IMG/VR virus record: IMGVR_UViG_3300037258_000375
Coordinates: 41,299-105,298 of that record
DNA from: a virus
Reading direction: 5' to 3' (one strand)
DNA: 64,000 nt
This document shows positions 45,513-45,647 of this stretch, in pieces; the first letter of the stretch is position 1; each line of letters begins with the position of its first letter. Position numbers and translations under genes: made by a program. Below the pieces are notes generated by a model. The model saw nothing but the letters and a program-made list of their open reading frames with translations, had not been told where the DNA came from and ran no database searches.

Positions 45513-45647
45513 GGGCTGTAGTCGATCTGCTTGTGTTGCTAAGCGCTCTACCACTGAGCTAATCCCGCATAAAATTATGGGGCGGGATGAAGGATTCGAA
45601 CCTCCGACCTCTGCCTTGGAAGGGCATGTAAGCAAATCAGTCAGCCC
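45513..45647 (-). ncRNA. Y-RNA-like unit 3 with circularly permuted tRNA-Gly (TCC)
   Basis: 135 nt. Ends GGGCTG/CAGCCC, loop ACTG versus CGACTA, inner ATTTGC/GCAGAT, then TACATG. Inside, the 3' part of a tRNA-Gly (anticodon arm with CTTCCAA, T arm GGAGG-TTCGAAT-CCTTC, ATCCCGC, C, CCA) comes first. After an AT-rich linker (TAATTTTAT) comes the 5' part (GCGGGAT, TA, D arm GCTC-AGTGGTA-GAGC). The break is at the 5' base of the anticodon stem. Confidence 0.85.

What the first reader, a model, noticed from the sequence alone, without database searches (positions are those of the whole stretch)
45513..45647. Circularly permuted tRNA-Gly(UCC) inside a Y-RNA-like unit
The 3' part of a good tRNA-Gly, including encoded CCA, lies upstream of its 5' part, with an AT-rich linker (TAATTTTAT) between CCA and position 1. 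The new ends sit at the base of the anticodon stem and are held together by the ACTG/CGACTA helix. Permuted tRNA genes are known in some archaea and algae; I know of none in a phage. It may be processed to a working tRNA or remain a tRNA mimic.
Basis: partly seen in the sequence, partly recalled or inferred. Interest (0 to 1): 0.85.

Follow-up and report, generated by a model that had tools for sequence, protein, structure and literature searches.

The report
Permuted-tRNA Y RNA in phage array
A virus of bacteria carries a row of at least seven small 'Y RNAs' beside the gene for their protein partner (Ro60), and the one flagged here has a transfer RNA built in with its halves swapped; swapped-half tRNA mimics are known in bacterial Y RNAs, but keeping a tRNA's CCA end and anticodon arm, and lying beside a Y RNA with the opposite wiring, is new to me.

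Summary
On the minus strand at 45511-45649 the order is: Y-stem strand, anticodon arm (loop CUUCCAA, Gly UCC), T arm, acceptor 3' strand, C-CCA, UAAUUUUAU, acceptor 5' strand, D arm, Y-stem strand. It is not chance. A covariance model built only from other phages finds it at 96 bits, against 31 bits for the next best place in the window. Across 20 phage units, 26 of 30 pairs show compensatory changes.

It is most likely not a gene for a working tRNA. It is one of at least seven Y-RNA-like units lying just upstream of an HNH gene and a Ro60/Rsr-fold gene. Homologues close the same acceptor helix with UUCG, CUCG or GCAA, so CCA is not needed. The closest known kind is YrlA, the Y-RNA tRNA mimic, which has the same permuted order.

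New here, as far as I know: the anticodon arm and an encoded NCCA are kept. Neighbouring units 45250-45367 and 45059-45171 are the inverse circular permutation (tRNA ends free with CCA, Y hairpin inside). Relatives graft the Y stem at three different tRNA junctions.

Proposed mechanism: a Ro60 tether or scaffold presenting tRNA-shaped modules. Processing of the CCA-bearing form into a nicked, chargeable RNA is not excluded.

The parts
45511..45649 (-). the finding: Y-RNA-like unit with permuted tRNA-Gly(UCC)-like module (class P1)
   Evidence: CM without the window clade 96.4 bits, E 5e-23; covariation
45630..45649 (-). Y stem, 5' strand (ATGGGCTG-AC-TGATTTGCTT), followed by conserved ACATG
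   Evidence: fold; outer stem 5/5 in 22 of 31 units vs 9% with partners swapped
45612..45626 (-). anticodon arm UGCC-CUUCCAA-GGCA (UCC, U33), upstream half
   Evidence: fold; helix 3 paired in 70% of cells
45589..45605 (-). T arm GGAGG-UUCGAAU-CCUUC
45582..45588 (-). acceptor stem 3' strand AUCCCGC
   Evidence: all 7 acceptor pairs show compensatory changes across units
45578..45581 (-). encoded N73-CCA (CCCA)
   Evidence: sequence; NCCA in 7 of 21 class P1 units
45569..45577 (-). linker UAAUUUUAU between CCA and position 1
   Evidence: sequence
45562..45568 (-). acceptor stem 5' strand GCGGGAU
45545..45559 (-). D arm GCUC-AGUGGUA-GAGC
45511..45532 (-). Y stem, 3' strand (AAGCAGAT-CG-ACTA-CAGCCC)
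45746..45860 (-). unit U1: Y stem with D, anticodon and T arms, then a CCCC-GCAA-GGGG hairpin (class A)
   Evidence: Y-stem scan; fold
45657..45730 (-). unit U2: short Y RNA without tRNA-like module
45377..45497 (-). unit U4: class A with tRNA-Lys(CUU)-like core, no true acceptor; hairpin UUCCC-GAAA-GGGAA instead
45250..45367 (-). unit U5: inverse permutation (class I): acceptor with CCCA at the ends, Y hairpin closed by GAAA inside, anticodon-like arm AGU-CUCAUCA-ACU
45059..45171 (-). unit U6: class I, acceptor UGGGGAA/UUCCCCA-G-CCA, Y hairpin inside
44711..44842 (-). unit U7: Y stem with G-rich non-tRNA insert
   Evidence: counterparts in L001, L013, L068
44140..44691 (-). HNH endonuclease gene between array and Ro60 gene
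   Evidence: PF14279/PF01844
42602..44254 (-). Ro60/Rsr-like protein, 550 aa (helical TROVE-like part plus VWA domain)
   Evidence: AlphaFold2 model; the best 12 PDB matches are all Ro60/TROVE/Rsr structures; PF05762 and phrog_850; DxSxS invariant at D362/S364/S366

Best explanation
The element is a phage Y RNA of the YrlA type. A Y stem, presumed to bind the phage's Ro60-like ring protein, carries a tRNA body circularly permuted at the D-arm/anticodon-arm junction, so that the tRNA acceptor helix becomes a closed hairpin and the RNA's own ends lie in the Y stem. I propose that it works as an intact tether or scaffold: Ro60 holds the Y stem, and the tRNA-shaped end is bound by a tRNA-recognising host or phage factor (a nuclease such as PNPase in the known RYPER case, a tRNA-modifying enzyme, or a tRNA-attacking enzyme for which it is a decoy). 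The array presents several such modules with different tRNA bodies and attachment points on one Ro60 protein. Shown here: the anatomy, its conservation, and the linkage to a Ro60-fold gene. Inferred: Ro60 binding, that the RNA stays intact, and the identity of the partner.
For: The Y-stem pairing, tested without being used to choose the units, is 5/5 in 22 of 31 outer stems against 9% with swapped partners. 26 of 30 pairs have compensatory changes, and 90.8% of cells are paired against 64.5% shuffled and 48% or less when slid. A model built without the window's clade finds it at 96.4 bits, E 5e-23. The neighbouring gene has the Ro60/Rsr fold and lies near Y arrays in related contigs. Rfam's nearest family is YrlA: 29 bits here, 44.9 bits over the full length for relative L023. 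Homologues close the acceptor with 4-nt loops (UUCG, CUCG, GCAA, CCCG) in 6 of 21 units, so the helix need not be opened.
Against: The Rfam YrlA gathering score (69) is not reached, and the same model gives 28 bits to a tandem tRNA-Pro/tRNA-Arg junction. Unlike the YrlA consensus, this unit keeps an anticodon arm and an encoded NCCA. NCCA is kept in the five closest units with a permuted module (window, L001, L013, L027, L002), which hints at processing. No transcript, Ro60-binding or partner data exist.
Confidence: 0.72

Rival explanations
1. Two-piece RNA: RNase P and a 3' nuclease cut the acceptor loop (after CCA and before G1), as proposed for permuted two-piece tmRNA, giving a nicked tRNA-like RNA with a free CCA end held together by the Y stem and Ro60, perhaps aminoacylated.
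For: Full 7-bp acceptor, T arm, NCCA and an A/U-rich leader in this unit. NCCA kept in all five closest units while the linkers diverged. The same window encodes a permuted tmRNA. The inverse units U5 and U6 already have free acceptor ends with CCA. Two-piece tmRNA processing by RNase P and probably tRNase Z is described in PMC3985003.
Against: 4-nt acceptor loops in homologues. N73 is C here, unlike the phage's own tRNA-Gly with U73. No processing data.
Confidence: 0.15
2. True circularly permuted tRNA-Gly gene: ends ligated to a circle, acceptor cut, a decoding tRNA made.
For: Order of halves, encoded CCA, intact anticodon arm with UCC and U33.
Against: No bulge-helix-bulge junction. No RtcB or ATP-grasp RNA ligase family found in the held 105-kb record (the T4 Rnl1 search was uninformative, and the record may be a fragment). 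Ordinary tRNA-Gly(UCC) present. Homologues have tetraloops and varied loops.
Confidence: 0.04
3. Decoy or sensor for tRNA-cleaving defence enzymes: the array displays anticodon loops on stable RNPs that absorb or survive anticodon nucleases. (A special case of the tether/scaffold model, listed apart because it predicts a different partner.)
For: Several units keep 7-nt anticodon-like loops with U33 and different anticodons: UCC, CUU in the window; UUC, UGU, GUU and others in relatives. A competitive-inhibitor role of YrlA was suggested in PMC7790460.
Against: The anticodon helix is only 70% paired over 20 units and some units lack it. No nuclease identified.
Confidence: 0.15
4. Chance or decay product of a tandem tRNA duplication.
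For: The locus is rich in tRNA genes, and tandem tRNA pairs mimic the order (28-bit YrlA match at 46043-45983).
Against: Strong covariation, Y stem and conservation in many phages.
Confidence: 0.01

Closest known systems
YrlA, bacterial Y RNA with tRNA-like domain (Rfam RF02553)
   Same: Y stem at the RNA's ends; order T arm, closed acceptor helix, D arm; encoded near a Ro60/Rsr gene; full-length Rfam match in relative L023
   Different: Below Rfam's cut-off here (29 vs 69 bits); keeps an anticodon arm; acceptor loop of 13 nt with encoded CCCA instead of a short loop; one of several differently wired units in an array
Circularly permuted tRNA genes of algae and Thermofilum (PMC3978253)
   Same: 3' half encoded upstream of the 5' half, with an intervening sequence at the acceptor
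   Different: No BHB motif; ends in a Y stem; phage genome with its own normal tRNA-Gly(UCC)
Permuted two-piece tmRNA (PMC3985003; RF04321)
   Same: Acceptor piece with CCA encoded upstream of the piece carrying position 1
   Different: No tag reading frame or pseudoknots; a Y stem instead. An actual permuted tmRNA lies separately at 47662-48074
Ro60/Y RNA loci of other phages (mycobacteriophages; Listeria phage CKA15, PMC12282133; Thermus phage phiLo Ro60 structure 9l5y)
   Same: Ro60-fold gene, in the first two with Y RNAs or candidate Y RNAs nearby
   Different: I found no description of arrays in which tRNA bodies are joined at different junctions or in inverse permutation, but the key YrlA papers were not held here

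Membership tests
YrlA (RF02553) | order Y strand, T arm, closed acceptor helix, D arm, Y strand | tested here: met
YrlA (RF02553) | Rfam gathering score 69 bits | tested here: not met
   29 bits in the window; best relative 44.9 bits
YrlA (RF02553) | encoded beside a Ro60/Rsr gene | tested here: met
YrlA (RF02553) | acceptor helix closed by a short loop, no CCA | tested here: not met
   13-nt loop with CCCA in the window; 4-nt loops in 6 of 21 homologues
YrlA (RF02553) | binds Ro60; modified by DusA/TruB (PMC8394870) | not testable with these tools
   needs RNA and protein work
Circularly permuted tRNA gene | 3' half upstream of 5' half | tested here: met
Circularly permuted tRNA gene | bulge-helix-bulge motif at the junction of the ends | tested here: not met
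   predicted fold has a 7+10-bp stem with an AC/ACUA internal loop
Circularly permuted tRNA gene | circular RNA intermediate and mature tRNA | not testable with these tools
   needs RNA from infected cells
Two-piece tmRNA | tag reading frame and pseudoknots in the 5' piece | tested here: not met
   downstream half is acceptor strand, D arm and Y strand only; Rfam tmRNA families match elsewhere
Two-piece tmRNA | cleavage of the acceptor loop | not testable with these tools
   needs RNA ends mapping
Ro60/Rsr protein (neighbour) | HEAT-repeat ring plus VWA fold | tested here: met
   model pLDDT 74; the best 12 PDB matches are all Ro60/TROVE/Rsr, E down to 4e-10; Pfam TROVE itself not matched at E 0.1

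The most novel reading that the evidence does not exclude
The phage builds one composite, a tRNA with a Ro60-binding stem growing from the D/anticodon junction, in both circular permutations side by side. In the CCA-bearing permuted form the acceptor loop is cut to give a nicked, aminoacylatable Y RNA, so that Ro60 would carry charged tRNA-like ends: a tRNA/Y RNA hybrid with a role in translation or charging rather than only in RNA decay.
Probability: 0.15. Interest if true: 0.9.

Novelty: new variant of a known kind. Interest (0 to 1): 0.62.

Why it matters
Y RNAs are thought to tether Ro60 to effectors, and the effectors of tRNA-like Y RNAs are mostly unknown. These arrays vary where the Y stem joins the tRNA (position 8-9, 26, or variable loop), which permutation is used, which anticodon is kept and whether a CCA end is present, while keeping the T arm and, in most classes, an acceptor-like helix stacked on it. 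That natural variation points to what the partner reads and makes the question testable in one phage. It is also a natural case of a stem inserted into tRNA in both circular permutations.

Tried and rejected
Rejected: chance; tandem-tRNA artefact (same-order junctions score 28-35 bits by YrlA, R1 and R2, the unit 96-115 by R2 and R1); recent copy of the phage's own tRNA-Gly (rejoined halves match it no better than several other phage tRNAs). My first Y-stem scan was too strict and missed real units, and swapped-partner scoring with free offsets was uninformative; one search replaced them. phmmer against the PDB found nothing for the Ro60-like protein; only the fold search did. RNA-ligase searches of the 105-kb record were empty (the T4 Rnl1 control rang nowhere, so that one is uninformative). 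The key YrlA papers (Chen 2014, Wang 2018, Sim 2018) are not held, so statements on YrlA rest on Rfam, on reviews and on general knowledge of the family.

Full report
What is there. The window is part of a 105-kb IMG/VR record with a large tRNA cluster. On the minus strand, from about 45860 down to 44711, lie seven units built on one plan: a stem strand ending ...AC-UG-N8-ACAUG, and a partner strand N8'-CG-ACUN-.... All seven CGACTAC/TACATG motif pairs of this kind in the window are in that stretch. An HNH gene (44140-44691) and a 550-aa gene (42602-44254) follow. The 550-aa protein has a VWA domain and matches phrog_850. Its AlphaFold2 model (pLDDT 74) has as its 12 best PDB matches only Ro60, TROVE and Rsr structures, including Rsr of Deinococcus (2nvo) and Ro60 of Thermus phage phiLo (9l5y). 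So the array looks like a Ro60/Y RNA locus.

The finding. The unit at 45511-45649 folds without constraints into an outer stem, an inner 10-bp stem, an anticodon arm UGCC-CUUCCAA-GGCA, a T arm and a 7-bp acceptor closed by CCCA-UAAUUUUAU. The D arm GCUC-AGUGGUA-GAGC, drawn slightly differently in that one minimum-energy fold but supported by the alignment, completes a tRNA in the order anticodon arm, T arm, acceptor 3', CCA, linker, acceptor 5', D arm.

More than chance. Ro60 relatives were collected from viral contigs. A descriptor found permuted units with perfect acceptors in many of them and none in 2.56 Mb of shuffled sequence. The Y-stem pairing was not used to pick these units, yet the outer stem pairs 5/5 in 22 of 31, against 9% with partners swapped. 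An alignment of 20 units gives 30 pairs, 26 with changes on both sides; 90.8% of cells are paired, against 64.5% shuffled and 48% or less when the partner is slid. The acceptor and T-arm share of this is partly selected by the descriptor, and the ends of the aligned units were chosen with help of the outer stem; the independent test of the Y stem is. A covariance model made without the window and its closest relatives finds the unit at 96.4 bits (E 5e-23); the next best place in the window, a tandem tRNA-Pro/Arg, gets 31. With the full model, 28 of 42 sources have a hit of 46 bits or more (a few sources are near-duplicates).

What kind. Rfam's nearest family is YrlA, in the same permuted order: 29 bits here, 44.9 bits over the full length in L023, gathering score 69. 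YrlA is a Y RNA whose tRNA-like domain has D, T and acceptor arms and is a substrate of DusA and TruB (PMC8394870). It works like YrlA. I do not file it as an Rfam YrlA member, because the score is not reached and two features differ: the kept anticodon arm and the CCA-bearing acceptor loop. Across 21 units the acceptor loop begins NCCA in 7 and is a 4-nt loop such as UUCG, CUCG or GCAA in 6. A UUCG-closed acceptor cannot present a CCA end, so the shared function does not need one.

The rest of the array. U5 (45250-45367) and U6 (45059-45171) have the opposite wiring: acceptor strands with CCCA or GCCA at the RNA's ends, and a Y hairpin, closed at its far end by a short loop, inside. U5 keeps an anticodon-like arm and T arm, so U3 (the finding) and U5 are circular permutations of the same composite. 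In the scan that did not ask for CCA, six of the nine well-formed units of this class have NCCA. Further examples were aligned, but I picked them partly by their CCA, so they do not count for that statistic. U1 and U4 join the Y stem near position 8-9 and close an acceptor-like hairpin with GNRA loops. In several relatives (for example L043, L044, L066) the stem joins at the variable loop, with the anticodon arm in the downstream half. U2 is a plain short Y RNA, and U7 carries a G-rich insert.

Mechanism. Most likely (0.72) the unit is an intact Ro60-tethered tRNA mimic. The known precedent is RYPER, where Rsr and Y RNA steer PNPase (PMC8394870). For this phage the partner is inferred. The main alternative is cleavage of the CCA-bearing loop into a two-piece RNA, for which permuted tmRNA, present in this very window, is the precedent (PMC3985003). 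Against a decoding tRNA: there is an ordinary tRNA-Gly(UCC), C73 instead of U73, no bulge-helix-bulge (PMC3978253), and tetraloop homologues.

Novelty. Phage Y RNAs near Ro60 and permuted tRNA-like Y RNAs are known kinds. The side-by-side inverse permutations, the several graft points and the retained CCA and anticodon arm are variants I did not find described, with the limit that the main YrlA papers were not readable here.

Noticed in passing
window 47662-48074 (-): Permuted (alpha-type, two-piece) tmRNA encoded by the phage, 101 bits to Rfam tmRNA_permuted.
   Followed up: partly
L070 2490-2570 (Streptomyces phage HaugeAnator, MG663582, about 16104-16184): Unannotated permuted tRNA-like RNA between annotated tRNA-Pro and tRNA-Gly, 36.9 bits to YrlA over the full model; stem GACCGG/CCGGUC, acceptor GGGUGA/UCACCC without CCA.
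   Followed up: partly
window 45059-45171 (-): U6 acceptor UGGGGAA/UUCCCCA with G73 and CCA resembles the acceptor of tRNA-Gln (U1-A72, G73); L013 has the same type.
   Followed up: no
window 44711-44842 (-): Y unit with a conserved G-rich non-tRNA insert just upstream of the HNH gene; counterparts in L001, L013, L016, L017, L018, L068.
   Followed up: no
window 44843-45058 (-): About 215 bases between U6 and U7 of unknown nature, absent at the same place in L013.
   Followed up: no
window 46105-46147 (-): Remnant of a tRNA 3' part with T arm and ACCA but no 5' partner, inside the tRNA cluster.
   Followed up: no
L010 5800-7310 (LR756511.1, 595-kb phage): Another Y array with a different motif (GUCCCC..CUUACAAAC / ACUUGGAC), one unit holding a tRNA-Thr(UGU)-like core, upstream of a 28%-identical Ro60-like gene.
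   Followed up: partly
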